From Candidatus Magasanikiibacteriota bacterium (GTDB lineage Bacteria > Patescibacteriota > Patescibacteriia > Magasanikbacterales > GWA2-37-8), in assembly GCA_023246715.1 (NCBI GenBank), contig JAHFHZ010000005.1, positions 1-50,254 of the forward strand: a stretch of 50,254 nt of DNA, written 5' to 3'. The number at the start of each line of letters is the position of its first letter. Position 1 is the stretch's first letter. Below are positions 6,100 through 35,161 of this stretch, in pieces. A program made the position numbers and the translations under genes. The notes under the pieces were generated by a model. That model saw only the letters and a program-made list of their open reading frames with translations. It was not told the origin of the DNA and searched no databases.

Positions 6100-6117
6100 A
6101 GATGCTACAAATCAAAA

Positions 6118-9237: not shown

Positions 9238-9240
9238 AGA

Positions 9241-9639: not shown

Positions 9640-9730
9640 ATGCGAATGAGTATATATCGTAGATATAAAATTTAGTATTTCTGCTAATTTTTATTTATAA
9701 TTAGCCAAAACAATACTATCAATGTGTACC

Positions 9731-9830
9731 TGTCATTTCGAGCGAAGCGTAGTCGAGAAATCCCTTAGCGTTGGTTTACCAACTAACACCAAGGGATTCC
9801 TCCACTCGTGCGAACTCGGTCGGAATGACA
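9731..9830. repeat. TGTCATTTCGAG-type palindromic element (full copy)
   Basis: A 100-bp element has terminal inverted arms TGTCATTTCGAG and CTCGGTCGGAATGACA and internal AAATCCCTT/AAGGGATT arms. It separates the cupredoxin gene from the copper-transport genes and could act as a transcript-processing or termination structure. A truncated relative lies at 118-192. Confidence 0.75.
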
Positions 9831-9877
9831 ATGAGGAGAAACCCTAAATGAATTCTATGTATGATTAGTATAGCACA

Positions 9878-10903
9878 TTAAAAGTTAAACACCGGCGGAA
9901 TCAAGCCAATCGCTACCAAGCTATTGATGATATTAAAAATCGCAAACAAAATCACGATCAGCCCGGCGCTTTTGAAGAATATTCCGGCTTTCGCGCTATT
10001 CTGAATGCTGAACGAACTAAAACTAATCAAGGCCAAAACCGGCAAAGTGCCGAGCGCAAAGATAAACATGGTCAACGCGCCTTTCAAAAAACTGCCGGTC
10101 GATAAGGTATAAATCTGCATGGATTGGGTAAAGCCGCAGGGAAAAAAGAAGGTGGCAATGCCGATCAATGCGGGGGTCAGCGTGTGGTTAAGTTTGGTGA
10201 CCGTAAACGCTTGGCGCGAAATGAATTTCGGCATGGCTGGTTGCAGGTGTTTGGTGAAGTTAAAAATATCTAAGAGGTTAATCCCGAGGAGTAGCATGGA
10301 GAGGCCAATAATAATGCCGAGCACAAACGTACCGACTGCTCCGAGTTGAAACGCAGCTCCGAGCGTGCCGATCACGCCCCCCAGAATAAAAAACGATGCT
10401 AAACGCCCGCCGTGAAACAAAAGTTGCGGACGGACTTTGTCGCCCTCTTTGGCAAACGTGGCGGACATAGAAAGCACGATCCCACCCACCACGGCCATGC
10501 ACGTTGACAACGAAGCGATAACGCCAATCACAAAGGCCGTACCATAGGTAACGCTTCCGGCATTCACCAAGTTCACAATCCCCAGCTTTTGGAGCAAGAT
10601 AAACAAAAAAGCAAAACCAAGAGCAACTGGAATGGCAATGGTAAATTCTTTCCAGTTAATCTGTTTCTTTTCCGGCTCCGTAGAAAGGGAATGCTCCGAC
10701 AGCAAACCGCTTAATTCTGCGGCAATTTCTGCTAATGGTTTATCACCAAAATCCCCGCATATTTCTACCGTTCGAGCGTGCAAGCTCGACTTAGCGGATG
10801 CTACGCCGGGGTGGTCAACCAATTCAGTTTCGGTCAGGATGACGCACGAGTTGCAATGCATGCCGTGAACGTGAAGGGTGTATATTTTTTGATTTGTATT
10901 CAT
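9878..10903 (-). CDS. HMA domain fused to a TauE/SafE-DsbD-type membrane protein
   Basis: An N-terminal heavy-metal-associated domain (GMHCNSC, Cys17 and Cys20, within residues 1-75) is joined to a membrane part with about six helices. The latter has the two conserved cysteine sites of the DsbD/CcdA-like transporters: SLSTCMAVVGG and FFFPCGFTQSMQ. HMA-plus-TauE/SafE proteins are known from copper-handling loci and are thought to move copper or reducing power across the membrane. The start overlaps the copA stop (ATGA at 10900-10903), so the two are translationally coupled. Copper transport is inferred from the fusion and its neighbours. Confidence 0.85.
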   Translation of the reverse strand: MNTNQKIYTLHVHGMHCNSCVILTETELVDHPGVASAKSSLHARTVEICGDFGDKPLAEIAAELSGLLSEHSLSTEPEKKQINWKEFTIAIPVALGFAFLFILLQKLGIVNLVNAGSVTYGTAFVIGVIASLSTCMAVVGGIVLSMSATFAKEGDKVRPQLLFHGGRLASFFILGGVIGTLGAAFQLGAVGTFVLGIIIGLSMLLLGINLLDIFNFTKHLQPAMPKFISRQAFTVTKLNHTLTPALIGIATFFFPCGFTQSMQIYTLSTGSFLKGALTMFIFALGTLPVLALISFSSFSIQNSAKAGIFFKSAGLIVILFAIFNIINSLVAIGLIPPVFNF

Positions 10904-13194
10904 AATTTTTTGGTTTTAAGCCGTAGGGAATTAGACACAACCGAGACGCTCGAAAACGCCATCGCTAGCCCAGCGAACACGGGATTCAACAGCCAGCCAA
11001 AGATTGGATAAAATACTCCGGCCGCCAGGGGAATGCCGACAATATTATAGATAAAGGCCCAGAATAAATTCTGTTTGATTCCTCGCATGGTCATCTTGGA
11101 GAGCTTGATCGCTTTAATGAGTTTAGAAATATCCCCGCGCAGGAGCGTAATACCAGCGGATTCGATCGCCACATCCGTACCGGTCGCCATCGCAATCCCA
11201 ACATCAGCCTGGGCCAACGCCGGTGCGTCATTCACGCCGTCACCCGCCATCGCGACAATTTTGCCTTGTTTTTGTAGTTCTTTAATCTTTTTCAGTTTAT
11301 CTGCCGGTAGTACCTCGGCCACTACTTCGTCAATACCCACTTGATCGGCAATGGCGCGGGCGGTAGTTCTGTTATCCCCGGTGAGCATGACTACGCTGAT
11401 GCCAAGCCGGTGCAGCTCGGCCACAGCTTCTTTAGCTTCCGGCTTTATCGCGTCCGCGACAAACACCAGGCCCAGTATTTTTTCTTTCGTGGCCAAAATA
11501 ACTGGAGTTGCACCGGCCTGAGCTTCTTCGGCAATCACCTCAGGCGCTACTGACAGACCCAAGTCTTGAATCAAGGCGGTATTACCAGCGTAATATTCGA
11601 CATCATTAATAATTCCGGTAAGCCCTTTGCCTTTGATCGCCTCGAATTTTTCGACGGATACGAATGACAATTTTTTTTCGGACGCATAGGTCACGATGGC
11701 GTGAGCTATGGGGTGCTCGGATTTTTTCTCGAGCGAAGCCAGTATCGTCATGAGTTCGTCGTCTTTTTTATCGGAAAGATTTTTTATACCGATCAGTTCT
11801 GGCTTGCCTCTCGTGATGGTGCCGGTTTTATCCATTACGACGACAGTGGCTTTATGCAGTTTTTCAAGTGTTGCCGCATCTTTAATAAGAATTCCTTCTT
11901 TGGCACCTTTGCCCACGCCGACGATTATGGCGGTGGGTGTGGCGAGGCCGAGCGCACAGGGACAAGCGATAACGAGAATTCCCACAAAGGAAACCAAGCC
12001 GTATGATAGTGCTTGCGAAAATCCTAAGTAGCCCGTACCGATACTTAGCCAGGCAGCTAAAGCAACAACTGCTAGGATAAGTACTATCGGCACAAAGACG
12101 GCAGAAATTTTATCGGCGAGGGCTTGGATGGGGGCTTTACTTCCTTGTGCTTCTTGCACCATGGTAATAATTTGGGCAAGCATCGTTTCTGACCCGATTT
12201 TCGTAGCCCTGAATGTAAATGATCCGCTGGTATTGATGGTTCCGGCGACAACTGTATCGTCGGTATTCTTTTGTACCGGCATGGGTTCGCCGCTCACCAT
12301 TGATTCATCGACATAGGACGACCCTTCGGTAACAATTCCGTCCACGGGAATTTTTCCAGCCGGTTTAACAATTATTAGATCATCGTGTAACACTTGAGTA
12401 ACTGGGATTTCAATTTCCTGGCCACCCCGAATAACTAAGGCAGTCTTAGCTTGCAGGTTGAGGAGTTTTTCAATCGCGTCACCGGTTTTTAATTTTGACC
12501 GGGCTTCTAAATATTTGCCCAGAGTGATAAAAGTCACCACCACAATCGTCACATCATAATAGGTATGTTCGACATTAATAAACGGGCGCAGTGTTTCTTC
12601 AAACGCCGTAATAACGAAGCTGTAGATAAAAGCGGCCAGCGTGCCGATTCCGATCAGCGTATCCATATTGGCCTTGCCATAGCGGATAAACCGATAGACG
12701 CCGACGAGATATGGTTGGCCGACGACAAAGAGGGTGTAGGTCGCAAAAATGGGGAGGAGGTGATGGAAAAATTCTTTCCAAATGTAGGGAGTCGCTGGGA
12801 CTAGGTTAAATTGCGCCAAAATATCTGAGGTCATGACAAAAATACTGAAAATAGTCAACGGGATGACGGACAGCACTTTGCGTCTGAAAGCAGCGAGTTC
12901 GGCTAATTTTTCTTCTTTGGATTGCTGCAATCCCAGATGGGTCGCGTGTTCATCTGGGGACATGCCCATTTCTTTCGTTGCGGGGATAGCTAAAGAATAG
13001 CCAAACGGTTCGATCTTTTTGGAAAGCTCATGCGGATTAGTTTTAGTCTCATCCCAATTCACCTTGGCGGTTTCCGTGCCATAGTTCACTTCGGCCGAAG
13101 CAACACCCGGCACTTTTTTAAAGGTTTTTTCAATCGTACCGGCGCACGAGGCGCAATGCATGCCTTTGATTCTGAAAATTTGATGAGCGTTCAT
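10900..13194 (-). CDS. copA: Cu+-exporting P1B-type ATPase
   Basis: The ATPase has 764 residues. It has one N-terminal HMA domain (GMHCASC, Cys14 and Cys17), the actuator motif VSGEPMPVQ, and the transmembrane CPC motif of Cu+/Ag+ pumps (Cys411-Pro-Cys413 in ACPCALGLATPTA). The phosphorylation site is Asp455 in DKTGTITRG, followed by the HP motif (SEHPIAHAI), TGDN and GDGVNDAPALA. It pumps monovalent copper out of the cytosol. It starts two bases after csoR, so one copper-responsive transcript probably covers csoR, copA and the HMA/TauE gene. Function is secure; strict Cu versus Ag preference cannot be read from sequence. Confidence 0.95.
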   Translation of the reverse strand: MNAHQIFRIKGMHCASCAGTIEKTFKKVPGVASAEVNYGTETAKVNWDETKTNPHELSKKIEPFGYSLAIPATKEMGMSPDEHATHLGLQQSKEEKLAELAAFRRKVLSVIPLTIFSIFVMTSDILAQFNLVPATPYIWKEFFHHLLPIFATYTLFVVGQPYLVGVYRFIRYGKANMDTLIGIGTLAAFIYSFVITAFEETLRPFINVEHTYYDVTIVVVTFITLGKYLEARSKLKTGDAIEKLLNLQAKTALVIRGGQEIEIPVTQVLHDDLIIVKPAGKIPVDGIVTEGSSYVDESMVSGEPMPVQKNTDDTVVAGTINTSGSFTFRATKIGSETMLAQIITMVQEAQGSKAPIQALADKISAVFVPIVLILAVVALAAWLSIGTGYLGFSQALSYGLVSFVGILVIACPCALGLATPTAIIVGVGKGAKEGILIKDAATLEKLHKATVVVMDKTGTITRGKPELIGIKNLSDKKDDELMTILASLEKKSEHPIAHAIVTYASEKKLSFVSVEKFEAIKGKGLTGIINDVEYYAGNTALIQDLGLSVAPEVIAEEAQAGATPVILATKEKILGLVFVADAIKPEAKEAVAELHRLGISVVMLTGDNRTTARAIADQVGIDEVVAEVLPADKLKKIKELQKQGKIVAMAGDGVNDAPALAQADVGIAMATGTDVAIESAGITLLRGDISKLIKAIKLSKMTMRGIKQNLFWAFIYNIVGIPLAAGVFYPIFGWLLNPVFAGLAMAFSSVSVVSNSLRLKTKKL

Positions 13195-13196
13195 AC

Positions 13197-13466
13197 TTAA
13201 TTGGAGAGATTATAAATTTTGAGCAGTTCGTCAATCGCTTTCTTTTTATTATCGATGAGCTGGTGAGCTACGCAGGTGTCGAGATGCCCAGCCAGGAGCT
13301 CGCGTTTGGCGGTTTTAAGGAGGCCAATCACGCTATCCACCTGTTGGATGATTTCGGGGCAGTAACGATCCGCTTCGACCATCTCCACGACTTTGCCAAG
13401 CGTGCCCCGCGCCTGTTTGGCGCATTTGAGGGATTTTTGTTTATTAGATTTTAATAGTTTTACCAT
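13197..13466 (-). CDS. csoR: CsoR-family copper-sensing repressor
   Basis: This all-helical repressor of 89 residues has the Cu(I)-binding Cys36-His61-Cys65 set (RYCPEI and GHLDTC). Copper binding releases CsoR from operator DNA. It is the first gene of the copper operon, 2 bases before copA, and the inverted repeat at 13491-13509 lies about 25 bases before its start, so it probably represses itself and the pump. The ATG at 13466 is the only sensible start. The family also holds nickel, formaldehyde and persulfide sensors; the copper neighbours settle the choice. Confidence 0.93.
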   Translation of the reverse strand: MVKLLKSNKQKSLKCAKQARGTLGKVVEMVEADRYCPEIIQQVDSVIGLLKTAKRELLAGHLDTCVAHQLIDNKKKAIDELLKIYNLSN

Positions 13467-13483
13467 AGAATTATAGGATTAAG

Positions 13484-13509
13484 TAACCTATAACCTATAG
13501 TATAGGTTA
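13484..13509 (-). promoter_or_regulatory. putative CsoR operator
   Basis: TAACCTATA (13491-13499), a central G, and TATAGGTTA (13501-13509) form a perfect 19-bp inverted repeat. A third, overlapping half-site TAACCTATA begins at 13484. It lies just upstream of csoR and overlaps the likely -10 (TATACT on the minus strand). The placement and ACCTATA-TATAGGT symmetry fit copper-operon operators. Confidence 0.7.
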
Positions 13510-13660
13510 TTTCAATTTTTGATGCAAATTCTGTAATGAGCCAGAAAAAGATTTTGGAAGAAGAAGTTATCCGTTCTGAACAAAAGCAGTATGATCGGCT
13601 CGAACCTTGTTCTCGAAACGAAAAAAGCCCACGGGTTAGCCACGGGTGCATGGTCGTTGT

Positions 13661-13735
13661 TGGTAGCCCCAACGGGAATCGAACCCGTGTTACCACATTG
13701 AAAGCGTGGTGTCCTAGCCACTAGACGATGGGGCC
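13661..13735 (-). tRNA. tRNA-Glu (anticodon TTC)
   Basis: The minus strand gives a full cloverleaf: acceptor GGCCCCA/TGGGGCT (first pair G-U), D arm with AGTGGCTAGGAC, anticodon loop CTTTCAA (TTC), T arm ACGGGTTCGATTCCCGT and an encoded CCA. The bases between csoR and this gene (13510-13660) hold no other feature I can support. Confidence 0.95.
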
Positions 13736-13865
13736 ATTATTTGGTACTAAGCGTTCAATCGCCGCCCTACTTTTTCATTTTTTAGTTGTTGTAAATCATC
13801 AGTGCTGCCGACGTAATTCGATCAAAACCGAAATCGGTATGGGGCCGCTTAAATTGAACGGTGCT

Positions 13866-13894
13866 ATAGTATATTTTTTTGCAAAAGAAGTCAA
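13866..13894 (-). promoter_or_regulatory. sigma70-type promoter for tRNA-Glu
   Basis: On the minus strand TTGACT (13889-13894), 17 bases, TACTAT (13866-13871). The transcript would run about 120 bases before the tRNA. No gene is seen in 13736-13952. Confidence 0.5.
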
Positions 13895-13952
13895 TAGTTT
13901 GTTTAAAATAAAAAAAGACCTTTGTAAGTCTGTGTTACGTGAGGAAAGGGGG

Positions 13953-14002
13953 GTGGCGGAGCCGCGCGCCACGGGGTGAGGGGGGCTGCCTGCGGTGGCA
14001 GC
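13953..14002 (-). terminator. two G+C-rich hairpins after the 14.0-kb cassette
   Basis: GCTGCC/GGCAGC (13985-14002) abuts the stop codon of the cassette gene, and GTGGCG/CGCCAC (13953-13972) follows. Neither has a T-run, so this is not a standard intrinsic terminator, but the other two intact cassettes also end in a T-less G+C-rich stem. Confidence 0.4.
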
Positions 14003-14356
14003 TTAGTATAGATCGGGGTCGGTCGAGCTCCCGCCCCCAATTGGGCGGAAATTTTCCCTCAGGATCTTGATTAGCATGGCAATTTTGAACCCTTCAAAAT
14101 GCACAAACTTCTCCGCCCGGAGCGGAGCGAGGAAGTGGACCGGAGTTTGATACCCCGGTCCGCGCGCCTCGAGGAAAGCTGCGCGATCCTCGGCGTTGAG
14201 CACCACCGGGATCTGCCCGGCGGTTAAACGGACCGTGATCGCGGCTGGTGTGTCCGCGCTCGGGGGCAGCGAGATCAGGTGCTGCGCTGGGGCGGTCCTG
14301 GCGGTCGGCACGGCCGGCGGTGCAACCCCTTTGCGAGCATGTGGTCGACGCGACAT
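14003..14356 (-). CDS. unknown protein on a G+C-rich cassette
   Basis: The protein has 117 residues and starts at ATG 14356, preceded by a strong AAGGAGG seven bases upstream. An Arg/Pro/Ala-rich N-terminus (MSRRPHARKG, then VPTARTAPAQ) leads to a compact C-terminal half with TVRLTAGQIPVVLNAEDRAA and an Ile/Leu/Phe-rich end (GFKIAMLIKILRENF). There is no signal peptide or membrane helix. Codon use is far more G/C-rich than in RNase J next door, which suggests transfer. No family is recognised. A longer in-frame reading to 14551 is unlikely because it crosses the promoter and leader. Confidence 0.6.
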   Translation of the reverse strand: MSRRPHARKGVAPPAVPTARTAPAQHLISLPPSADTPAAITVRLTAGQIPVVLNAEDRAAFLEARGPGYQTPVHFLAPLRAEKFVHFEGFKIAMLIKILRENFRPIGGGSSTDPDLY

Positions 14357-14389
14357 GGCGCCCTCCTTTTCAACTCTGTGATGTTGAGC

Positions 14390-14427
14390 GTGATGTCTGA
14401 AAAATAGCGTTATTTTCCAAACATCAC
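14390..14427 (-). other. bipartite hairpin in the cassette leader
   Basis: The outer stem GTGATGT/ACATCAC encloses an inner GAAAATA/TATTTTTC stem with an ACGC loop. It sits between the boxA-like motif and the ribosome-binding site of the 14003-14356 gene. Confidence 0.5.
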
Positions 14428-14430
14428 ACC

Positions 14431-14450
14431 CAACAATCGTTAAAGAACGA
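14431..14450 (-). promoter_or_regulatory. boxA-like motif
   Basis: The minus strand reads CGTTCTTTAACGATTG, close to the rrn boxA antitermination core TGCTCTTTAACA. It lies just after the start of transcription predicted from the 14457-14485 promoter. A similar motif occurs in the 23.7-kb leader. Confidence 0.35.
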
Positions 14451-14456
14451 CACTGA

Positions 14457-14551
14457 AGGCTAGCACATTTTCGGGGTTTTGTCAAGATACCCCGGTGCTC
14501 GCCAAAAATATATAATGGTCTTACTGTAGCACATTTTTGCTTGGTCAACAA
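14457..14551 (-). promoter_or_regulatory. tandem promoters of the 14.0-kb cassette
   Basis: The proximal promoter is TTGACA (14480-14485), 17 bases ending in TGC, TAGCCT (14457-14462), an extended -10 of the TGCTAG type. The distal one is TTGTTG (14546-14551), 17 bases ending in TGC, TACAGT (14523-14528). Two tandem promoters followed by a boxA-like motif recall an rRNA leader. Confidence 0.6.
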
Positions 14552-14588
14552 CGCTTTGGCTTGCTCAAAAATTGAGCTTGTTTAGATA

Positions 14589-14620
14589 ACAAAAAGCCTG
14601 AATCGGTAATATTCAGGCTT
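14589..14620 (-). terminator. intrinsic terminator of rnj
   Basis: AAGCCTGAAT/ATTCAGGCTT is a 10-bp stem with a 7-base loop, followed on the minus strand by a T-run (14589-14593). It lies 29 bases beyond the rnj stop. Confidence 0.85.
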
Positions 14621-14648
14621 GTTGGTTGTGTGTATGTGGGTAGGGCGA

Positions 14649-16670
14649 TTAGACTTCGATTACCACCGGCAGGATCATGGGGCGTTTTTCGGTTTTGGTG
14701 AACAGGAACTGGCCCACGTAATCGCGGATTTTATTGCGGATGTTGTTCGTATCTGTCCACGACAGGGGGTCGGATTCCACCACCATCTTTTTCACCCGGT
14801 GCCGGAGGTCTTCGATGAGTTCTTTATGATCTTTTAGAAAGACAAAGCCGCGGGAAATAATATCTGGATTCTGGACGAGTTTGCCGCTCTTGCTGTCAAC
14901 AGTGGCGATAATAACGACCATGCCGTCTTCGGCGAGTACTTGCCGGTCGCGCAGCACGACATGCTGCGAGTCCGAAATGCCAAGGCCATCCACGAACACA
15001 TATTCGCTGGGGGCTTTTTTGTTGGTCATTTTCAGGCTACCTTGGGAGAGTTCGATGATTGATCCGTTATCTGGCACCAGGATTTTTTCGAGCGGGAAGC
15101 CGTTTTTGACAGCCAAGTTGCGCGCTTCTTTGAGGAAGAAGTGGTTGGCATACACCGGGATGTAATAATCCGGTTTAACTTGGCTGAGCATGTCCACGAT
15201 ATCGCGCCGGGTACCGTGGCCCGACACATGCACGTCCATGAGGTCGCCGTGAATAACATAATCGACCTGGCGGTAAATATTGTCTTTGAGGCGCTGCACG
15301 CTGCGTTCGTTGCCGGGGATAACCGAAGAGGAGAAAATAACCGTGTCATTTTTACGGAAGCGCAGATACTTATGTTCGCGCCGCACAATGCGATTAAGCG
15401 CCGCGTTTTCTTCGCCTTGCGCCCCGGTACAAACGACTACTATTTTATTCTCGGGGTATTTATCGGCTTCGCGTACGTCAATTTGCACGCCTTTGCCGAC
15501 TTTTATATAACCAAGTTCACGGGCGATTTCGATATTCATCTTCATGCTGTAGCCTTCAAGCACTACAAATTTACCAAGTTTTTGCGCCGCTTCAAGCACC
15601 CACTTCACCCGTTCCACCATAGAAGAGAAGGTGGCCAAAATCACGCGCCCCGGAGCATTTTGTAGAATTTCTGTCAGGTTTTTATAGAGTTCTTCGTGCG
15701 TGGCATGGCGGCCTTCGCGAATGGCCCCCAGGCTTTCGAGCATGAGAACGCTCGGACGCTTCACTTTTTGGAGTTGATCGTAGTAAATATGGGTTGAACC
15801 ATCGTCTTCGCGTTCCATGGTCCAATCGCCGGCATGTATGACGCTGCCCGCTGGGGTTTCGAGGATCGTTCCCATGGAATCCATGATGGAGTGTTCTACC
15901 TGGAAAAATTTTACGCGGAAAATACCAAGCTGAATGACATCGTGGATGCTCTTAACCGCAATGGTTCTGAGTCGATTGCCAGTATCTTTTTTATAATCTT
16001 CCTGGCGGTGTTTAATCATGGCGAGCGTCAGCGGCATGCCAACAATCGGAGGATTGCCCAGTTTTTCCAGCAGGATAGGAGCCGCGCCGATATGATCCAG
16101 GTGGCCGTGGCTAAAAATAACGCCGCGGATATTTTTTTCCTTGCCGATTAAGTACTTGGTGTTCGGGATCACATAATCAATACCCGGCATATCTTCTTCG
16201 GGGAACTGCACGCCCATGTCGAGGATAATAATATCGTCGCCATATTCGTAAATGGTCATGTTGCGCCCGACTTCTTCGCAACCGCCGATCGGAATAATGC
16301 GCAGGATGCCTTTGTCGTCAGTCGGCATTTCGCCGGAAGCATGTGTCGGAACAAAACGATTTGGCCGCGGCCCGCGGGCTGGAAAGCGGTTAGTGTCGGG
16401 AAAGGGTCGACGGCCTGTGCTTGGTTTGCCGGAGGCAGGCCGCGGGCTCAATTGGTGGGGGCTCTTGGGAGCTACTTTGAATTGTGGAATGGGGCTGGCG
16501 GCAACAGGGGCGGGGATTGTGCTTGGGGCAGAGGAGGGGGCGGCGCGGCGCACAAAGGGTCGGCTGGTGCCAGCGGCAGCGACCGGGCGGGGCCGACGTT
16601 CAAATGGTGTCGGGGCAGCGCGAAAACGTTTCGCTCCGCCAGGGGGAGGGGAGAAAGTTGGGGAGTTCAT
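14649..16670 (-). CDS. rnj: ribonuclease J
   Basis: This metallo-beta-lactamase/beta-CASP RNase acts in mRNA turnover and RNA 5'-end processing in the cytosol. The metal-binding motif is SHGHLDHIG (His188, His190, Asp192, His193); HAGDW, the beta-CASP region and HVSGHG follow. About 130 N-terminal residues are a low-complexity Pro/Ala/Arg extension (PPPGGAKRFRAAPTPFERRP and similar) that the usual ~555-residue enzyme lacks; the rest has normal length. The extension may bind RNA or protein partners (inference). The ATG at 16670 is the only good upstream start. RNase Y lies a few genes upstream, so both main mRNA-decay nucleases are in this stretch. Confidence 0.95.
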   Translation of the reverse strand: MNSPTFSPPPGGAKRFRAAPTPFERRPRPVAAAGTSRPFVRRAAPSSAPSTIPAPVAASPIPQFKVAPKSPHQLSPRPASGKPSTGRRPFPDTNRFPARGPRPNRFVPTHASGEMPTDDKGILRIIPIGGCEEVGRNMTIYEYGDDIIILDMGVQFPEEDMPGIDYVIPNTKYLIGKEKNIRGVIFSHGHLDHIGAAPILLEKLGNPPIVGMPLTLAMIKHRQEDYKKDTGNRLRTIAVKSIHDVIQLGIFRVKFFQVEHSIMDSMGTILETPAGSVIHAGDWTMEREDDGSTHIYYDQLQKVKRPSVLMLESLGAIREGRHATHEELYKNLTEILQNAPGRVILATFSSMVERVKWVLEAAQKLGKFVVLEGYSMKMNIEIARELGYIKVGKGVQIDVREADKYPENKIVVVCTGAQGEENAALNRIVRREHKYLRFRKNDTVIFSSSVIPGNERSVQRLKDNIYRQVDYVIHGDLMDVHVSGHGTRRDIVDMLSQVKPDYYIPVYANHFFLKEARNLAVKNGFPLEKILVPDNGSIIELSQGSLKMTNKKAPSEYVFVDGLGISDSQHVVLRDRQVLAEDGMVVIIATVDSKSGKLVQNPDIISRGFVFLKDHKELIEDLRHRVKKMVVESDPLSWTDTNNIRNKIRDYVGQFLFTKTEKRPMILPVVIEV

Positions 16671-21329: not shown

Positions 21330-21620
21330 ACAAAATTAAAAACCACAATCGCGTTTAGAGCGAGTGCGGAACGTGTTCCTTAGATAGCCGGTTTGGAGAG
21401 GGTAACCCCCGGCAGGGTTAGCCAGAAATCAGTAACAGAAGACAACGGCGGTTAGGCCGTTTTATAGCACGTACGTTTGGGTAGGAGTGACGAAGACATT
21501 TTGAAGACGATTGAGGTGCATAACTTCTTTGGGAACGGGCCATTCTGGGCTAGGTCGGAATTGGGAATAAGGATGTTCCGCGATTCGCTACACGATTTTA
21601 ATTAAAGTACGCGTAAGCGT
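21330..21620 (-). other. long 5' untranslated leader of rny
   Basis: About 290 bases separate the predicted rny transcript start from its ATG. The stretch holds an AACGGC/GCCGTT hairpin with a 6-base loop (about 21450-21467) and a GGTAACC/GGGTTAGCC pairing (about 21398-21421), and no reading frame I can support. Leaders of this length on RNase genes elsewhere take part in autoregulation; whether that holds here is inference. Confidence 0.4.
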
Positions 21621-21627
21621 TGAGTAT

Positions 21628-21656
21628 AGTCTAGCATTCATCGAAAGTGGTGTCAA
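21628..21656 (-). promoter_or_regulatory. TGCTAG-type promoter of rny
   Basis: TTGACA (21651-21656), 17 bases ending in TGC, TAGACT (21628-21633) on the minus strand. It has the same form as the promoters of three of the G+C-rich cassettes, which shows that the form is native. Confidence 0.65.
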
Positions 21657-21723
21657 TTTAGCGGTTTTTCAACGCTTTATCAGAATCTTGTTGATAACAG
21701 TGCTCTGATAAGGGGTTGAAGCG

Positions 21724-21765
21724 GGCGGCGGGCTCTACCGAACCGAAGTCCGGGAGCCCGCCGCC
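21724..21765 (-). terminator. G+C-rich hairpin after the 22-kb cassette
   Basis: GGCGGCGGGCTC (21724-21735) pairs perfectly with GAGCCCGCCGCC (21754-21765), an 18-base loop between. No T-run follows on the minus strand. It lies 55 bases beyond the stop of the cysteine-rich gene. Confidence 0.5.
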
Positions 21766-21819
21766 GCAGGGGAGTTGAGAAGAGAGGGGGGGTGCTCGGC
21801 GCCCTGGCCCGCGCCCGGG

Positions 21820-23076
21820 TTAGAAGCCGTAGTGCTTCTCGCCTGCGCCGGCCGCGGCGCCGCAGACCGAGTGGGTCTCGTTGTTGGAACGGTGACCCTC
21901 GCACGCCCGGTCGGCGTATGTGGCGCAGTTCGTGCCCTCTACGGTCGTCCAGATGTAGTCTGACCCGACCGGGCATGCATAGAACAGCGACGCCATGGCC
22001 TCGATGCACGAGACCATCGACCCGTCGGCCTTGGAGCAGCGGATGCCGCCGGGAGCATCCAACCGAGCGGACTTGACCGCCGGGGTGGGGGCGTCAATGC
22101 AGGCAAGGGGCGACGGTGGGGCGAAGTCGGTGCCGATCGCCGCGCTCGGCAGGGGGACGGCGTGCAGGCTGAGGCAGTTTTTTGGTGTCGTGACCTCCTC
22201 GCCTTTCTTGCAGGCGCTCTTGCAGGGCTCGGGCGGTTTTTCGACGCAGCTGTTATTCACGCTGCATACGAAGCCGTCCAGACACTGTGTCGAGTTGGCG
22301 CACTTCCCGCCCTTGCTAGACTTGCAAATCATGCCGAAGCAGGTTGAGGGTTTGGCGCAGTCGGCCGTGCTCATGCACGCGCCGCCGACGGCCTGTTTGC
22401 AGGCGTTGACCTCCCCGATGTCACAGATGAGGCCGTTTGCGCAGTCCTTGTCGGACGCGCAGATGCTGTTCTGTGGCGCGCGGCAGACCCGCGCCCCCGC
22501 CGTGCCCTCGCATTTGGGCTTGCTGGCGGGGCAGTCGCGGTCCTGGGTGCACTCTTCGTTCGGGTGCGTGTTGCGGGTGCACGCGCCCTTAATGCCGCTC
22601 ATCTTACTTGGCGTGCCGGCGTTCTGCAGCGTGGTGCAGACATCGATGTCGAGGCAATCGCTGTCCACGTAGCAGGGCCCCCCGGTGATGGAGTGCCAGA
22701 GGCCGTTTTGGCATGTCACGTTCTTGTGGGCGGGGGATTCGGCCGTCGTGCACGCCACGCCCTGCACGGGCTGGCAGTACGAACGGTTGTCGTCTGCGTA
22801 GCAGCCGGCCTCGCAGTTCTCGGCCCGGTTTGGCGGGGCGCAGCGGCTCAGGGTGTTGAGGCACTCCAGCCTCCCGTTCCACCGATCTGTCGGGCACTCT
22901 CCGCAGCCGACCTGCGGCAGGGTGGTGGCCGCCACGGTGGCGGTGGCCGCGATGCCAGCGGCGCCGGGGGTGATGCCGGTGGGCGCGAGCGCCAGGAGCG
23001 CCGCGCCGATCAGGCCGATGATGCCCCGGCGCCCGGTGTGGGCGAGCGGCGGGGTCGTAGACAGTCGTTTCTTCAT
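21820..23076 (-). CDS. exported cysteine-rich protein on a G+C-rich cassette
   Basis: An N-terminal basic region and hydrophobic stretch (GRRGIIGLIGAALLALAP) form a signal sequence. The mature part has over 40 cysteines in repeated units with a C..D.DC core (PCYVDSDCLDIDVC, ECTQDRDCPASKPKC, ICASDKDCANGLIC, ACMSTADCAKPSTC, KCANSTQCLDGFVC). This resembles the Dickkopf-like cysteine-rich repeats frequent in myxobacterial and related secreted proteins. AGGAGAG lies nine bases before ATG 23076. Codon use is strongly G/C-biased compared with rny and infB on either side, which suggests transfer from a G+C-rich donor. It probably forms a disulfide-stabilised extracellular protein; its target is unknown. 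Confidence 0.75.
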   Translation of the reverse strand: MKKRLSTTPPLAHTGRRGIIGLIGAALLALAPTGITPGAAGIAATATVAATTLPQVGCGECPTDRWNGRLECLNTLSRCAPPNRAENCEAGCYADDNRSYCQPVQGVACTTAESPAHKNVTCQNGLWHSITGGPCYVDSDCLDIDVCTTLQNAGTPSKMSGIKGACTRNTHPNEECTQDRDCPASKPKCEGTAGARVCRAPQNSICASDKDCANGLICDIGEVNACKQAVGGACMSTADCAKPSTCFGMICKSSKGGKCANSTQCLDGFVCSVNNSCVEKPPEPCKSACKKGEEVTTPKNCLSLHAVPLPSAAIGTDFAPPSPLACIDAPTPAVKSARLDAPGGIRCSKADGSMVSCIEAMASLFYACPVGSDYIWTTVEGTNCATYADRACEGHRSNNETHSVCGAAAGAGEKHYGF

Positions 23077-23088
23077 GGTCGTTCTCTC

Positions 23089-23622
23089 CTATTTGGGGTG
23101 GTTGGTCCGCCAGGTCTTGAAGCCCTCCGGGGGCATGTTCGGTTCCGCGCAGATGTCGCTCAGGCGGCTGGCCTTCTCCTGGCCCTGATTGACCTTCTTG
23201 ACGAGCCCGGGGCAGCTCTCCTGGATGAGCACGAATGCGTCCTTGCACCGCGGGTGCATACCGTTTAGCTCGGGGTCCGTGTTCTGTACACTCATGACCC
23301 AGTCGGTGCAGTGCTCAACTAGCTGGGCGAACCACTCATCGGTCTGGCCCTCCTGCTCGAGATCGTATTTGAACCAGTCGAGCTCGGGGACGGCTCTCAG
23401 GTTTCCGCCCTGGAGTATCCATCCGATCCTGGTCGGCGATGGCTCGCCACGGGCATTTTTGTTTTTCACGTACTCGTCGACCGCCCCCGTCTGGTTGGTG
23501 TCCGACGACGGGTGGGGGTCTGGCACGGTGGTGGCGGTTGGCGGGCAGCCCAGCAGACTGAGCAGGATCAGACTGGCCGCCAGGGGGCGGCGGCGCAAGG
23601 GACGGGTCGTGGTCGTGTTCAT
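23089..23622 (-). CDS. lipoprotein on a G+C-rich cassette
   Basis: The protein has 177 residues and starts at ATG 23622, with GAGGAGG seven bases upstream. A twin-basic N-terminus and hydrophobic stretch end in a lipobox (LLSLLGC), then a Pro/Thr/Asp linker and a polar globular domain (TRIGWILQGGNLRAVPELDW, HPRCKDAFVLIQESCPGLV) with three further cysteines. It precedes the cysteine-rich gene by 12 bases, so the two form an operon and may act together at the cell surface (inference). Composition is alien to the neighbours. No family recognised. Confidence 0.65.
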   Translation of the reverse strand: MNTTTTRPLRRRPLAASLILLSLLGCPPTATTVPDPHPSSDTNQTGAVDEYVKNKNARGEPSPTRIGWILQGGNLRAVPELDWFKYDLEQEGQTDEWFAQLVEHCTDWVMSVQNTDPELNGMHPRCKDAFVLIQESCPGLVKKVNQGQEKASRLSDICAEPNMPPEGFKTWRTNHPK

Positions 23623-23662
23623 GGACGTCCTCCTCTTCGAGTTTGCCGTGCCGGTTGGTGGT

Positions 23663-23710
23663 CCCGGCATCGGAGCAAGGCGTTTGGCGCCGCATTACTC
23701 TGATGCCGGG
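23663..23710 (-). other. strong leader hairpin of the 22-kb cassette
   Basis: CCCGGCATC (23663-23671) pairs with GATGCCGGG (23702-23710); inner GGAG/CTCT and GGCG/CGCC pairs extend it. It lies in the 5' leader between the boxA-like motif and the lipoprotein start. Confidence 0.55.
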
Positions 23711-23746
23711 ATTTGGCTTATTTTTGCTAAAATTTTGGTTTCTCTT

Positions 23747-23765
23747 CTCAACTTGTCAAAGAGCA
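23747..23765 (-). promoter_or_regulatory. boxA-like motif
   Basis: The minus strand reads TGCTCTTTGACAAGTTGAG, matching the boxA core TGCTCTTT-AC at nearly every position. It lies about 30 bases after the predicted transcript start. Confidence 0.4.
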
Positions 23766-23801
23766 TTCCGATGGCCACTCTCGGCTCTCGAAATACAAGG
23801 A

Positions 23802-23830
23802 ACGCTAGCACTTTTTGGCTAAGCTGTCAA
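23802..23830 (-). promoter_or_regulatory. TGCTAG-type promoter of the 22-kb cassette
   Basis: TTGACA (23825-23830), 17 bases ending in TGC, TAGCGT (23802-23807) on the minus strand. The leader to the lipoprotein gene is about 175 bases. Confidence 0.6.
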
Positions 23831-23876
23831 GGGGGGTGAGGGGTACTGTACATCCTGGCGACCTGCATTTATAACG

Positions 23877-23905
23877 TTGACGCGCCGTTGGTAGTAGGAT
23901 ATAGT
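23877..23905 (+). promoter_or_regulatory. sigma70-type promoter of infB
   Basis: TTGACG (23877-23882), 17 bases, TATAGT (23900-23905), about 38 bases before infB. It diverges from the cassette promoter about 50 bases to the left. Confidence 0.65.
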
Positions 23906-23943
23906 GATGTGAAGTTTAACCCACAATTTAACTAAGTTTTCCA

Positions 23944-29439: not shown

Positions 29440-29477
29440 AAAAAGCACCCTGCTCCCCTTGACAGCCGGGTGTTTTT
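29440..29477. terminator. terminator of mutM, overlapping a promoter
   Basis: AAAAAGCACCC (29440-29450) pairs with GGGTGTTTTT (29468-29477), with a T-run at the end. The loop contains the TTGACA -35 of the next cassette (29459-29464), so terminator and promoter share the same bases. Confidence 0.65.
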
Positions 29478-29487
29478 GTGCTAGAGC
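29459..29487 (+). promoter_or_regulatory. TGCTAG-type promoter of the 29.5-kb cassette
   Basis: TTGACA (29459-29464), 17 bases ending in TGC, TAGAGC (29482-29487). AGGAGG follows at about 29503, and ATG 29513 four bases after it. Confidence 0.6.
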
Positions 29488-29512
29488 ATGTACAAGTCAA
29501 TCAGGAGGTCCC

Positions 29513-30049
29513 ATGCGTAACCGTACTTTGATCCCCGGCCTTGCTCTCTTGGCCGCCTGCGCGCACACCCCGGTCGGTCCGGTGCCGCCGCCTGCTCTGC
29601 CCCAGCAGCCCGCGTTCCCAGCAGTGATGGCGTCTGCCCCTCTGGCGCCTGTGCCGGAGGACGCTACTCTCGCGGCTGATCTGGCGGAGATATCTGCCTC
29701 CGAGGCCGAGCCGTACAAGGCGCGGTGGGAGAAGTCAAAGGATGCCAGCGTTCGGCCCCTCGCGCCCGGCAAGTCCGTGAGTTGCCCTATTGAGGGTGGA
29801 GTGCTGGTGCTCGAAGCGGCTACGCAGTTCGCGGCCTATTGCGGCACTGGCCTGATCTACCGTTTCGGGCGGCGCTACGAGGTGGTCACTGTGGCGCTCA
29901 ACCGCGGCCGCGAGGTCTACCCGTACGACATCAGGCTGCCCGCGGCGGGGATCACGATGCCCCCCAGGGCCTTCCGTTTCGGCCAGTGGCGGCACCCAGG
30001 CACAGATCAGCCGGGCGATAAGTGGACGCTGGTCGTGAATCGGCCGTAA
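29513..30049 (+). CDS. lipoprotein on a G+C-rich cassette
   Basis: The 178-residue protein begins MRNRTLIPGLALLAAC, a short signal with a lipobox (LLAAC), then a Pro/Ala linker. A polar beta-rich domain follows, with SCPIEGGVLVLEAATQFAAYC, YRFGRRYEVVTVALNRG and PPRAFRFGQWRHPG. Its two further cysteines may form a disulfide. Codons are strongly G/C-biased compared with mutM and the phosphatase on either side. Probably surface-anchored; function unknown. Confidence 0.65.
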   Translation: MRNRTLIPGLALLAACAHTPVGPVPPPALPQQPAFPAVMASAPLAPVPEDATLAADLAEISASEAEPYKARWEKSKDASVRPLAPGKSVSCPIEGGVLVLEAATQFAAYCGTGLIYRFGRRYEVVTVALNRGREVYPYDIRLPAAGITMPPRAFRFGQWRHPGTDQPGDKWTLVVNRP

Positions 30050-30072
30050 CCCGGTTTTCAACCCTCCGTTCC

Positions 30073-30106
30073 GGGCAGAGCGTGGCATGCTAGCCGCCCT
30101 CTGCCC
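30073..30106 (+). terminator. G+C-rich hairpin after the 29.5-kb cassette
   Basis: GGGCAGAG (30073-30080) pairs with CTCTGCCC (30099-30106), with inner GTGGC/TAGCCGC-type pairing. There is no T-run, as with the hairpins after the 14.0- and 22-kb cassettes. Confidence 0.45.
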
Positions 30107-30168
30107 GCCCAACTTCCTTAGTGTTGTATCAAGTCTGAGTATAACCCACCGGCTATTTTTTTGTTTAC

Positions 30169-31471: not shown

Positions 31472-34400
31472 ATGAAAAAATACAATCCGAAAGAAATCGA
31501 GCCTAAGCGCCAGAAGGCCTGGGAAGAAGACAAGACATTTTTGACCACGGAAAAAATGAATCAAGAGAAGTTTTTTGCTCTGGTTGAATTCCCGTATCCG
31601 TCTGGCGCTGGGCTGCACGTTGGGCACGCCCGGCCCTACACGGCCATGGATGTAATAGCGCGCAAAAAACGAATGGAAGGAAGAAATGTGTTGTTTCCGA
31701 TCGGGTTTGACGCGTTTGGTTTGCCGACTGAAAATTACGCCATTAAAACCGGGCGGCCGCCCGCCGAAGTAACGGCCGAAAATATCGTCACGTTTACGCG
31801 TCAACTCAAGGCGCTTGGATTTAGTTTTGATTGGTCGCGAGCGGTGGATACGACTGATCCTAAATATTATAAATGGACACAGTGGCTTTTTTTGCAATTT
31901 TTTAAACAAGGACTGGCCTATAAAAAAAACCAGCCCATCAATTGGTGCCCGAAAGATAAAATTGGCTTGGCAAATGAAGAAGTGGTTGCCGGATGTTGCG
32001 AGCGGTGCGGTACGGCGGTGGAGAAACGCAACAAGGAACAGTGGATGTTGGCGATTACCAAATACGCTGACTCGCTTTTGGCCGGGCTCAACGAAGTAGA
32101 CTATATTCCGCAGGCGCGGGCGCAACAGGAAAATTGGATTGGCCGGAGCGAAGGGGCGCTCATTCGTTTTGTCATTGCGAGGAGGGCCGGTAGCCACCGG
32201 CCCGACGAAGCAATCCCCCCGTTAACAGAATTACCCCCTACCGAACTCCAAGGGATTGCTTCACCTCGTTCCTCGGCTCGCAATGACATGAGGGAAATCG
32301 AAGTCTTCACTACCCGCCCGGATACTATTTTCGGAGCGACTTTCTTGGCCATCTCGGCCGAGCTGGCTAACAAATGGCTTGGTATTGGCTGGCAGACCAG
32401 CGCCGAGGTGCAAAAATATATCACCGATACACTGGTTGAACAAGCCGTGAATACGACGCGTGAAGAAAAAGAAAAAACTGGTATCGCGACTGGCGTTAAG
32501 GCCATTAACCCGGCGAACGGCGAAGAGATTCCGGTGTGGATTACTAATTATGTACTTGGTACTGTTGGCACTGGTGCCATCATGGCGGTACCAGCGCATG
32601 ATGAACGGGATTGGGAGTTTGCCAAGAAATATAATTTGCCACTTAAAGAAGTGGTATTAAAAATAATAGGGCGGCCACTTCCTAATGCTATTCGGCGCGA
32701 TGGAGCCTGCGCTGTGATAATGAAAGGTAACAAAGTCCTGGTTCTGTATACCAAAAAATTTGATTTTTTCTCTTTGCCCTCAGGGGGTTATAACCCCGGA
32801 GAAACACCCACAGAAACTATTCGTAGAGAAATTAGGGAAGAAACGGGCTATATCAATTTTAAAATTACTGATTATTTAGGAGAACTCGAAAAGAATGTAT
32901 TTGCCGTGGGGCGGAATGAAAATCGATATAGACTGCATAAGGGGTACTTAGTACAGCTTCTTGATGAAGAGAAAGTCCCACTCCAACTTGATGGTTATGA
33001 AGATTATGTAAGTGAATGGGTTACGCCGGAAGAGGCTATAAAGAAGTTATCAGAGAATCCCTATAAATATGGCGATGAGGAGTTTGTAAGGCGCGCTTTG
33101 AACGAGAGCGATCGTTGTTTTACCGGGGATGGGACGGCGGTAAATTCTGATTTTTTAGATGGCCTTTCCACTCCAGAAGCCAAAGCAAAAATAATTGCCT
33201 GGCTGGAAGAAAAAGGTGTTGGCAAACGCCAGGTAAATTACAAACTGCGTGATTGGGTGTTTTCTCGGCAGCGCTACTGGGGCGAGCCGATACCGCTGGT
33301 ATTCTGCGAAAACTGCCGCAATCATAAGTACAACTACGTCATTATCCACGGCTTTGGTTCCGATTCCACGCAAGGGTTTAAACCATGGCTCAAAAAAGAA
33401 TTGGAAGAGGCGGGGCATAGCGTTTTTCTACCTAATTTACCGAATACTAATAACCCGAGTGTAGATGAACAAGTTGACTATATTTTAAAAAATACCCAAC
33501 TGAACGAAGACACGATACTTATCGGCCATAGTTTAGGTGGTACGGTGCTGCTTAAATTATTGGAAAAAATTTCTACTCCGGTTGCCAAAGCCGTGATTGT
33601 GGATGCACCAATTGCCCCTCGATACAGCGATGGTGATCGGCCCGACGTAAACAAAAGTTGTGACTGGAATTTTGATTTCGCCAAGATTAAAAAAAATAGC
33701 CGCGAGTTTGTGGTTTTGGGCGATAAAAATTTTAGCGTGATTCCCGAAAATCAGTTGCGTGAGCTTGGCCAATTGGTAGGTTCGCCAACGCGTTTGGTGC
33801 AGCCAGAAGGGGCACATTTTAGCAGGGGTAGCACGCGTGAACCCGAAGTTTTACAAGCGGCTCTTTTTGCCGGTTGGATTCCGCTTCCCGCGGAACAGCT
33901 TCCGTTGGAGTTGCCCCAAGTTCAAAAATACGAACCAACCGACACTGGTGAATCACCGCTTGCCACAATGTCAGAGTGGGTAAAAACCACTTGCCCCAAG
34001 TGTGGCGGCGCAGCTCGGCGCGAAACCGACACCATGCCCAATTGGGCCGGGTCAAGCTGGTATTGGTTGCGTTATTGCGATCCAAAAAATGATCAAGAAT
34101 TTGCCAGCCAGGGAAAACTTGTCTACTGGCTCAAGAATAAATCTGTCATTCTGAACGAAGCAGAGCGCAGTGAAGAATCCCTTAAGGCAAAACAAGGAAA
34201 CGACCTTAGTGTTAAGGGATCATTCGCTAACGCTAAGGATGACAGGTGTGGGGGCGGCGTGGATTGGTACAACGGCGGCATGGAACATACGGTGCTCCAC
34301 TTGTTGTATTCTCGTTTTTGGAACCAATTCTTATTCGATTGCGGATTAGTGCCGACGCGCGAGCCCTATAAAAAACGCACTTCGCACGGCATAGTCCTGG

Positions 34401-35161
34401 CCGAAGATGGAGAAAAAATGAGTAAAAGCCGGGGCAACGTGATTAACCCGGATGATATGGTGGACAAATACGGCGCCGATGCGCTGCGCACTTATATCAT
34501 GTTCATGGGGCCGTTCGATCAGGCCGTAGCCTGGAGTACTAATGGCCTGGTGGGCGTGCGCCGGTTTTTGGATCGCGTCTGGAATTTAAAGGAACATGTC
34601 ATTGCGAGGAGCTACAGCGACGAAGCAACCCCTTCGTTTAAAGAATTAATTCCTTCTGAACACGAGGGGATTGCTTCGCCTCGTTCCTCGGCTCGCAATG
34701 ACAAGTTGACTACATTACTTCACCAAACCATCAAAAAAGTCACGGAAGATATTGATGGAATGAGATTTAATACGGCGATCTCGGCGCTGATGCAACTCAC
34801 CAACGAAATGACTAAACAGGAGGCGGTGACTTCTGGAGACTATAAGATTTTAATTCAACTTTTGTATCCTTTCGCCCCTCATCTGGGCGAAGAAGTCTGG
34901 TCCGCATTGGGTGCGAATGTAACTATCGCCTACGAACCGTGGCCGCAATACGACCCGGCACTAGCCAAAGCAGAGGAATTCAGTTTGGTCGTACAAATAA
35001 ATGGCAAAGTCCGCGATACCTTTTCCGTGTCTTCTGATACCAGCGAAGACGAAGCCAAACGCCTGGCGCTCGGGAGTGAAAAAATCCAAAAATGGCTGGA
35101 AGGCAAGGAGCCAAAAAAGATAATTTACGTGAAGAACAAACTGGTAAGCATTGTAATTTAA
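31472..35161 (+). CDS. leuS: leucyl-tRNA synthetase with inserted Nudix and hydrolase domains
   Basis: LeuRS charges tRNA-Leu and edits mischarged products. The core is complete: HVGH (49-52), a zinc-binding segment (CPKDKIGLANEEV to CCERCG), the editing domain (TTRPDTIFGATFL and MAVPAHDERDWEFA), DWVFSRQRYWGEPIPLVFC, KMSKS (982-986) and the anticodon-binding C-terminus. Total length is 1229 residues against roughly 800-870 for the family. The excess is a Nudix domain (about 401-548), a serine-hydrolase domain (about 617-801) and three translated palindromic repeats (about 234-272, 891-925 and 1042-1078). Removing these leaves about 790 residues. No frame is broken and all catalytic motifs survive, so it is probably active. 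Confidence 0.95.
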   Translation: MKKYNPKEIEPKRQKAWEEDKTFLTTEKMNQEKFFALVEFPYPSGAGLHVGHARPYTAMDVIARKKRMEGRNVLFPIGFDAFGLPTENYAIKTGRPPAEVTAENIVTFTRQLKALGFSFDWSRAVDTTDPKYYKWTQWLFLQFFKQGLAYKKNQPINWCPKDKIGLANEEVVAGCCERCGTAVEKRNKEQWMLAITKYADSLLAGLNEVDYIPQARAQQENWIGRSEGALIRFVIARRAGSHRPDEAIPPLTELPPTELQGIASPRSSARNDMREIEVFTTRPDTIFGATFLAISAELANKWLGIGWQTSAEVQKYITDTLVEQAVNTTREEKEKTGIATGVKAINPANGEEIPVWITNYVLGTVGTGAIMAVPAHDERDWEFAKKYNLPLKEVVLKIIGRPLPNAIRRDGACAVIMKGNKVLVLYTKKFDFFSLPSGGYNPGETPTETIRREIREETGYINFKITDYLGELEKNVFAVGRNENRYRLHKGYLVQLLDEEKVPLQLDGYEDYVSEWVTPEEAIKKLSENPYKYGDEEFVRRALNESDRCFTGDGTAVNSDFLDGLSTPEAKAKIIAWLEEKGVGKRQVNYKLRDWVFSRQRYWGEPIPLVFCENCRNHKYNYVIIHGFGSDSTQGFKPWLKKELEEAGHSVFLPNLPNTNNPSVDEQVDYILKNTQLNEDTILIGHSLGGTVLLKLLEKISTPVAKAVIVDAPIAPRYSDGDRPDVNKSCDWNFDFAKIKKNSREFVVLGDKNFSVIPENQLRELGQLVGSPTRLVQPEGAHFSRGSTREPEVLQAALFAGWIPLPAEQLPLELPQVQKYEPTDTGESPLATMSEWVKTTCPKCGGAARRETDTMPNWAGSSWYWLRYCDPKNDQEFASQGKLVYWLKNKSVILNEAERSEESLKAKQGNDLSVKGSFANAKDDRCGGGVDWYNGGMEHTVLHLLYSRFWNQFLFDCGLVPTREPYKKRTSHGIVLAEDGEKMSKSRGNVINPDDMVDKYGADALRTYIMFMGPFDQAVAWSTNGLVGVRRFLDRVWNLKEHVIARSYSDEATPSFKELIPSEHEGIASPRSSARNDKLTTLLHQTIKKVTEDIDGMRFNTAISALMQLTNEMTKQEAVTSGDYKILIQLLYPFAPHLGEEVWSALGANVTIAYEPWPQYDPALAKAEEFSLVVQINGKVRDTFSVSSDTSEDEAKRLALGSEKIQKWLEGKEPKKIIYVKNKLVSIVI
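32171..32287 (+). repeat. in-frame palindromic element 1 in leuS
   Basis: A 117-bp element (39 codons exactly) with arms GTCATTGCGAG and CTCGCAATGAC. It is translated VIARRAGSHRPDEAIPPL.. to ..IASPRSSARND. It sits at the edge of the editing domain, between LIRF and the EVFTTRPDT motif, a variable loop in this family. Confidence 0.85.
32672..33115 (+). other. Nudix hydrolase domain inserted in LeuRS
   Basis: Residues about 401-548 carry a full Nudix box (GGYNPGETPTETIRREIREE, then TGY), with the strands before it (GACAVIMKGNKVLVLYTKK) and a C-terminal VSEWVTPEEAIKKL. The insertion point is between NLPLKEVV and CFTGDGTAVNS, which are adjacent or nearly so in ordinary LeuRS. Nudix enzymes cleave nucleoside diphosphates linked to another group. 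Confidence 0.88.
33320..33874 (+). other. RBBP9/YdeN-like serine hydrolase inserted in LeuRS
   Basis: Residues about 617-801 form a complete alpha/beta hydrolase: YVIIHGFGSDSTQGFKPWL at the N-terminus, nucleophile Ser687 in GHSLGG, Asp751 in VVLGDKNFS and His782 in EGAHFS. It lies between the CENC pair and WIPLPAEQLPLELP. In ordinary LeuRS a CEKC-type pair leads almost directly to that Pro/Leu segment. Confidence 0.85.
34143..34245 (+). repeat. in-frame palindromic element 2 in leuS
   Basis: About 103 bp with arms CTGTCAT/ATGACAG and inner CCCTTAA/TTAAGGG pairing, a different subtype from elements 1 and 3. It is translated SVILNEAERSEESLKAKQG.. and falls between LVYWL and GGVDWYNGGMEHTV, just ahead of the catalytic core. 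Confidence 0.8.
34597..34703 (+). repeat. in-frame palindromic element 3 in leuS
   Basis: About 107 bp with arms TGTCATTGCGAG/CTCGCAATGACA, the same subtype as element 1. It is translated HVIARSYSDEATPSF.. to ..GIASPRSSARND, between VWNLKE and LTTLLHQTIKKV. This is the short linker where the anticodon-binding domain begins. Confidence 0.85.

What the first reader, a model, noticed from the sequence alone, without database searches (positions are those of the whole stretch)
21820..23622. Lipoprotein plus myxobacterial-style Cys-rich secreted protein in a CPR genome
Seen: a two-gene operon with more than 40 cysteines in C..D.DC units and a lipobox protein, both G+C-rich. Known: such Dickkopf-like cysteine-rich repeats are common in secreted proteins of Myxococcota and relatives. 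Inference: transfer from a myxobacterium-like partner may point to the organism's host.
Basis: partly seen in the sequence, partly recalled or inferred. Interest (0 to 1): 0.62.

Follow-up and report, generated by a model that had tools for sequence, protein, structure and literature searches.

The report
GC-rich secreted-protein cassettes in Patescibacteria
The cysteine-rich gene pair is real, but it is only one of dozens of G+C-rich, mostly unique surface-protein genes scattered through this tiny bacterium's genome, each with unusually strong expression signals, so it looks like a widespread gene-acquisition habit rather than one gift from a myxobacterial host.

Summary
Observation confirmed: a minus-strand operon encodes a lipobox protein (23089-23622) and a secreted 418-aa protein with 39 cysteines (21820-23076). 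GC3 is 0.85-0.87, against about 0.5 for neighbours. The Cys repeats weakly match Dickkopf_N and Myxo_Cys_RPT, below both curated cut-offs. No full-length relative turned up in 379 other Patescibacteria or in 49 genomes, mainly Myxococcota/deltaproteobacteria; only Cys-spacing matches did (best E 1.5e-6). The larger finding: the operon belongs to a genome-wide class. In 562 kb sampled there are 46 G+C-rich units, mostly without known family. Members have strong Shine-Dalgarno sites (81% versus 7% of native genes), extended -10 promoters (42% versus 6%) and lipoboxes (30% versus 1%). Unrelated genes of this class occur in relatives, even in the same rny-infB interval. Best reading: repeated acquisition of G+C-rich secretome genes as self-contained transcription units run from native-type promoters. 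Some units also carry complementary 9-13-nt arms in leader and 3' UTR, an unexplained pre-rRNA-like layout that a small second sample did not replicate. Donors and integration mechanism remain unknown.

The parts
23805..23831 (-). strong extended -10 promoter CTTGACA-N14-TGCTAG of the operon; same type recurs across this genome
23754..23765 (-). boxA-like element TGCTCTTTGACA in the leader
   Evidence: by eye; coordinates; consensus resemblance only
23741..23753 (-). 5' arm AGTTGAGAAGAGA, perfectly complementary to the 3' arm
23662..23711 (-). long leader hairpin (21-nt arms, 86% complementary)
23627..23636 (-). Shine-Dalgarno site AGAGGAGGAC
23089..23622 (-). lipoprotein gene, 177 aa, no family, no relative found in the searches that tested it
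21820..23076 (-). secreted 39-Cys protein, 418 aa, with Dickkopf_N / Myxo_Cys_RPT-like repeats at about 132-290
21773..21785 (-). 3' arm TCTCTTCTCAACT, 34 nt after the stop codon
21724..21765 (-). G+C-rich terminator hairpin
   Evidence: (I8)
29458..29484 (+). second unit of the same class: promoter CTTGACA-N14-TGCTAG
29513..30049 (+). second unit: G+C-rich lipoprotein gene, 178 aa, GC3 0.78
30072..30107 (+). second unit: G+C-rich terminator hairpin
   Evidence: I5
14003..14361 (-). probable third, weaker unit: gene with GC3 about 0.70, promoter 14460-14486, boxA-like CGTTCTTTAACG

Best explanation
The operon is one self-contained expression unit in a genome-wide class of G+C-rich genes that this Patescibacteria lineage has gained repeatedly from outside, from donors not yet identified. 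Shown: distinct composition, strong native-type promoter, structured leader, strong Shine-Dalgarno site, terminator, and an excess of lipoproteins in the class. Inferred: each gene was acquired laterally and kept because its product works at the cell surface. Inferred: the Cys-rich product is exported by its signal peptide and folded by disulfides into small stable repeats, while the lipoprotein is anchored in the membrane; together they act in contact with other cells or the surroundings.
For: GC3 is bimodal in this genome (main peak 0.4-0.6, second 0.8-0.9) and in G018, G028, G017 and G010. Genes chosen by composition alone carry SD>=5 in 21/26 versus 15/222 native, and extended -10 promoters in 11/26 versus 14/222; relatives show 22/35 versus 46/562 and 12/35 versus 30/562. 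Leader G+C equals native leaders (0.46 versus 0.47), so leader composition does not explain the SD excess. Lipobox in 14/46 versus 2/238. Unrelated G+C-rich genes sit in the rny-infB interval of G018 and G009 and just upstream of infB in G010. Almost no sharing among sampled relatives. The MFS member has good matches in Myxococcota and an Oligoflexales genome (37-41%, E to 4e-55) but in only 1 of 239 other Patescibacteria. The trypsin-like lipoprotein matches Pfam Trypsin at 7e-17. Published work attributes up to 13% of Patescibacteria genome length to HGT (PMC12455944).
Against: No donor found for most members. A DUF4407 and a DUF3865 member have distant Patescibacteria relatives. Promoter and leader look native, not imported. 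No integrase, target-site duplication or common recombination site was identified. Function at the surface rests on signal sequences only; the AlphaFold models were uninformative (pLDDT 39 and 43).
Confidence: 0.6

Rival explanations
1. A single transfer from a myxobacterium-like partner or host brought this operon in.
For: Repeat architecture mostly in Myxococcota/deltaproteobacteria; Cys-repeat matches there at E 1e-6 to 1e-3; foreign composition.
Against: No full-length relative in 49 genomes mainly of that group; no MYXO-CTERM; dozens of other unrelated G+C-rich genes need explaining too; the repeat unit also occurs in Patescibacteria and Micrarchaeota.
Confidence: 0.1
2. The genes are native, fast-evolving surface genes whose high G+C arises inside the genome, for example by biased gene conversion or selection on strongly expressed transcripts.
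For: Native-type promoters and AT-rich leaders; lineage-wide occurrence; ORFans with no donor.
Against: Sharp G+C steps near gene boundaries; the normally highly expressed native gene groEL has ordinary GC3 (0.59); MFS and trypsin-like members belong to families not typical of Patescibacteria (MFS shown; trypsin by own knowledge).
Confidence: 0.17
3. The units are cargo of a virus or transposable element, bounded by the 13-bp inverted repeats.
For: Perfect 13-bp inverted repeat 21773-21785 / 23741-23753, not reached in 100 shuffles; similar arms in four other units.
Against: Arms differ in sequence between units and lie inside promoter and terminator, unlike shared transposon ends; no phage, PHROG, viral-contig or plasmid match; no transposase in the rny-infB interval.
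Confidence: 0.1
4. Assembly chimera or contamination from a G+C-rich organism.
For: Metagenome-type assembly in 44 contigs; sharp composition changes.
Against: Dozens of short units inside contigs between native genes, sharing native-type promoters, and the same phenomenon in independently assembled relatives; contamination estimate 1.16%.
Confidence: 0.03

Closest known systems
Myxo_Cys_RPT (TIGR04201) and Dickkopf_N (PF04706) Cys-rich repeats
   Same: Repeated C-x5-C-x5-C units with D before the second Cys, in a secreted protein
   Different: Scores 15.1 and 15.8 bits, below the cut-offs of 25; only part of the protein; no MYXO-CTERM tail
Phage morons
   Same: Single genes of divergent composition with own promoter and terminator, inserted between unrelated genes (definition from own knowledge)
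   Different: On a bacterial chromosome among core genes; native-type promoters; no phage relationship found
Horizontally acquired genes and genomic islands of groundwater Patescibacteria (PMC12455944)
   Same: Several percent of genome length attributed to foreign genes in ultra-small genomes
   Different: That study reports transfers mostly between Patescibacteria, with Omnitrophota and Bacteroidota among outside donors; a G+C-rich lipoprotein class with distinct SD and promoter use was not in the passages read
Ribosomal RNA transcription units
   Same: Promoter, boxA-like leader, complementary arms flanking the product, terminator
   Different: Encodes proteins; arms only 9-13 nt; boxA label by resemblance only; the genome's own rrn leader does not carry the same boxA-like sequence

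Membership tests
Myxo_Cys_RPT (TIGR04201) | Whole-protein score at or above the curated cut-off of 25 bits | tested here: not met
   15.1 bits, E 0.019
Dickkopf_N (PF04706) | Score at or above the gathering cut-off of 25 bits | tested here: not met
   15.8 bits, E 0.018, three stretches
MYXO-CTERM surface proteins | C-terminal Cys motif, hydrophobic segment and basic end | tested here: not met
   C-terminus ...CGAAAGAGEKHYGF has no hydrophobic tail; no other NCBIfam hit at E<=10
Bacterial lipoprotein (gene 23089-23622) | n-region with basic residues, hydrophobic core, lipobox with Cys | tested here: met
   MNTTTTRPLRRRPLAASLILLSLLGC
Sec-secreted protein (gene 21820-23076) | Basic n-region, hydrophobic core, small-residue cleavage site | tested here: met
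   By reading: MKKRL...GIIGLIGAALLALA...ATA; no dedicated predictor was available
G+C-rich class of this genome | GC3 far above the genome's native mode | tested here: met
   0.87 and 0.85 versus median 0.54
G+C-rich class of this genome | Strong Shine-Dalgarno site and extended -10 promoter | tested here: met
Laterally acquired gene | Closest relatives outside the recipient's phylum | tested here: inconclusive
   No full-length relative found; only Cys-repeat matches outside the phylum
Phage moron or mobile-element cargo | Association with phage genes, integrase, or shared terminal repeats | tested here: not met
   No phage, plasmid, viral or PHROG match; arms differ between units
Integron gene cassette | attC site and integrase | not tested
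   No attC model was run
boxA antitermination | NusB/NusE binding to boxA | not testable with these tools
   Consensus resemblance only; strict boxA not clearly enriched

The most novel reading that the evidence does not exclude
This Patescibacteria lineage uses a dedicated expression module (strong promoter, boxA-like element, 5' arm, structured leader, strong Shine-Dalgarno site, gene, complementary 3' arm, terminator), laid out like a ribosomal RNA precursor, to capture and express G+C-rich foreign surface genes that its own expression system would otherwise terminate early or translate poorly.
Probability: 0.18. Interest if true: 0.78.

Novelty: new variant of a known kind. Interest (0 to 1): 0.56.

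Why it matters
How minimal, mostly host-dependent bacteria gain and keep surface proteins is an open question, because their genomes are small and most of their contact proteins are unknown. A compositionally marked class with its own expression signals would let such proteins be listed directly from sequence in many genomes. It also warns against inferring a host from a single foreign-looking gene.

Tried and rejected
Relatives of the Cys-rich protein: none in 56 near relatives, genome contigs by peptide pattern, plasmids, viral contigs, phages, PDB or 379 other Patescibacteria. Relatives of the lipoprotein: none in plasmids, viral contigs (52) or PDB. Rfam gave nothing in the leader. AlphaFold without an alignment gave unusable models, so no fold search was made. 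Full duplex energies of leader against 3' UTR showed no cognate excess; ungapped tests did for some units. The shared promoter as evidence of one donor was rejected when it proved to be the genome's own strong promoter type. Transposon ends were considered and rejected because the arms differ between units. A native 19-nt pair near L046:9731 contains TGTTTCACGTGGAACA, a parS site by own knowledge, and explains the one strong native case in that test. In relative G028 a 13-nt match (L130:12907) probably lies in coding sequence and overlaps its terminator, so it was not counted. A concatenated multi-protein search (81, 82) is unreliable as a negative: only top candidates were scored and even the query's own lipoprotein was not recovered in its own genome.

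Full report
OBSERVATION. GC3 is 0.85 and 0.87, against 0.585 and 0.548 in rny and infB on either side. The window is one whole contig of a 1.06-Mb Patescibacteria assembly, 92.8% complete.

ANATOMY. Reading along the minus strand: promoter CTTGACA-N14-TGCTAG (23831-23805), a boxA-like TGCTCTTTGACA (23765-23754), a 13-nt arm (23753-23741), a long hairpin (23711-23662), a strong Shine-Dalgarno site, the two genes, the exact complement of the arm (21785-21773), and a G+C-rich terminator hairpin. The leader folds 4.9 standard deviations better than shuffles.

FAMILY. The repeats resemble Dickkopf_N (15.8 bits, cut-off 25) and Myxo_Cys_RPT (15.1 bits, cut-off 25) but belong to neither by score. The pattern's fixed GACTGC start favours G+C-rich genomes. 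In a search of 240 Patescibacteria, 22 carry weak single units at E<=0.01, four over the cut-off.

RELATIVES. The Cys-rich protein has no relative in 56 near relatives, 379 other Patescibacteria, plasmids, phages or viral contigs. In 49 genomes, mainly Myxococcota and other deltaproteobacteria, five give weak matches confined to the Cys-rich part (best E 1.5e-6, 36% over about 90 residues). The two ends of the protein match nothing in the loci held. So neither a myxobacterial nor a purely patescibacterial origin is shown.

A GENOME-WIDE CLASS. The promoter pattern led to many other G+C-rich genes. A sample of 298 kb held 30 such units by a rule that requires a Shine-Dalgarno site, and a second sample of 264 kb held 16 more; a few of these calls may be wrong frames. 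In the first sample composition-selected genes make up 7.6% of the DNA. GC3 is bimodal here and in some relatives (G018, G028, G017, G010), but not in others (G002, G036, G004). Genes chosen by composition alone carry a strong Shine-Dalgarno site in 21 of 26 cases against 15 of 222 native genes (Fisher p 2e-16), and an extended -10 promoter in 11 of 26 against 14 of 222 (p about 2e-6); relatives show the same (22/35 versus 46/562; 12/35 versus 30/562) (three native cells in the Fisher tests were entered one or two lower than these counts). Leaders have native base composition. Lipoboxes occur in 14 of 46 units against 2 of 238 native proteins. The promoter type itself is the organism's own strong promoter, also used by native genes.

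CONTENT AND ORIGIN. Few members tested have a family: an MFS transporter, a trypsin-like lipoprotein, a DUF4407 protein and a DUF3865 protein. The MFS protein matches Myxococcales, Anaeromyxobacter and Oligoflexales genomes at 37-41% identity (E to 4e-55) but only one of 239 other Patescibacteria, more weakly; other phyla could not be compared. DUF4407 and DUF3865 members have distant Patescibacteria relatives. Sampled G+C-rich proteins show almost no matches to proteins of sampled relatives: one within-genome pair and a few weak hits. In the rny-infB interval relatives carry truB, and G018 and G009 also carry unrelated G+C-rich genes there; G010 has one directly upstream of infB. Repeated acquisition from several unidentified G+C-rich sources fits best; evolution in place is not excluded.

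COMPLEMENTARY ARMS. In five of six units of the first sample that have both promoter and boxA-like element, the 32 nt after the box core contain a 9-13-nt stretch complementary to the first 90 nt after the stop codon (scores 23-31; 2% of mismatched pairs reach 23, none reach 29). In the operon the arms are 13 nt, perfect. The prediction was written down before the second sample was taken and was not met there: 0 of 2 testable units. The layout recalls ribosomal RNA precursors, but the boxA label rests on resemblance and strict boxA is not clearly enriched. I treat this as unexplained.

MECHANISM. Most likely the unit is transcribed strongly and on its own, translated through its strong Shine-Dalgarno site, and both products leave the cytoplasm: the lipoprotein anchored in the membrane, the Cys-rich protein exported and disulfide-folded. 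A role in cell contact is inference from signal sequences and repeat type.

LITERATURE. A study of groundwater Patescibacteria attributes up to 13% of genome length to HGT, with most single-gene transfers between Patescibacteria and with Omnitrophota and Bacteroidota among outside donors; 'Myxococc' does not occur in its main text (PMC12455944). MYXO-CTERM sorting is described as specific to Myxococcota (PMC11980579). I found no paper on a G+C-rich class with its own expression signals; the library holds open-licence papers only.

LIMITS. Genes were called by a simple ORF rule; samples cover about half the genome; relatives were sampled thinly and are unnamed; the concatenated search cannot be used as a negative result; the lipoprotein 23089-23622 was not searched across Patescibacteria in a valid way.

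Noticed in passing
31472-35161 (+): Leucyl-tRNA synthetase of 1229 aa with an in-frame NUDIX domain (408-530) and an alpha/beta serine-hydrolase domain (622-783) inserted.
   Followed up: partly
29458-30107 (+): A second G+C-rich lipoprotein unit with the same promoter type and its own terminator, downstream of mutM.
   Followed up: yes
L293 (G000:C37:35001-50471), 9208-15027: Cluster of six G+C-rich genes in one direction, most with lipoboxes; larger than the usual one- or two-gene unit.
   Followed up: partly
L086 (G016), 6017-7456: A gene with GC3 0.83 against a median of 0.56 that looks like purB (adenylosuccinate lyase) by eye, read on the strand as fetched: a metabolic gene of the same composition class, useful for tracing a donor.
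   Followed up: no
L044 13366-15098 (+): 16S rRNA gene about 200 nt longer than the bacterial model, so it probably holds an insertion.
   Followed up: no
21330-23943: truB, present between rny and infB in most relatives of the family, is missing from this interval and was not found in the first sampled stretches or the second.
   Followed up: partly
L046 9731-10486 (-): Native gene flanked by a near-perfect pair of TGTTTCACGTGGAACA-like sites, which read as parS sites next to a chromosome-partition gene.
   Followed up: no
46866-46892 (-): Strong promoter of the same type between groEL and the next gene with no protein gene downstream; perhaps a small RNA.
   Followed up: no
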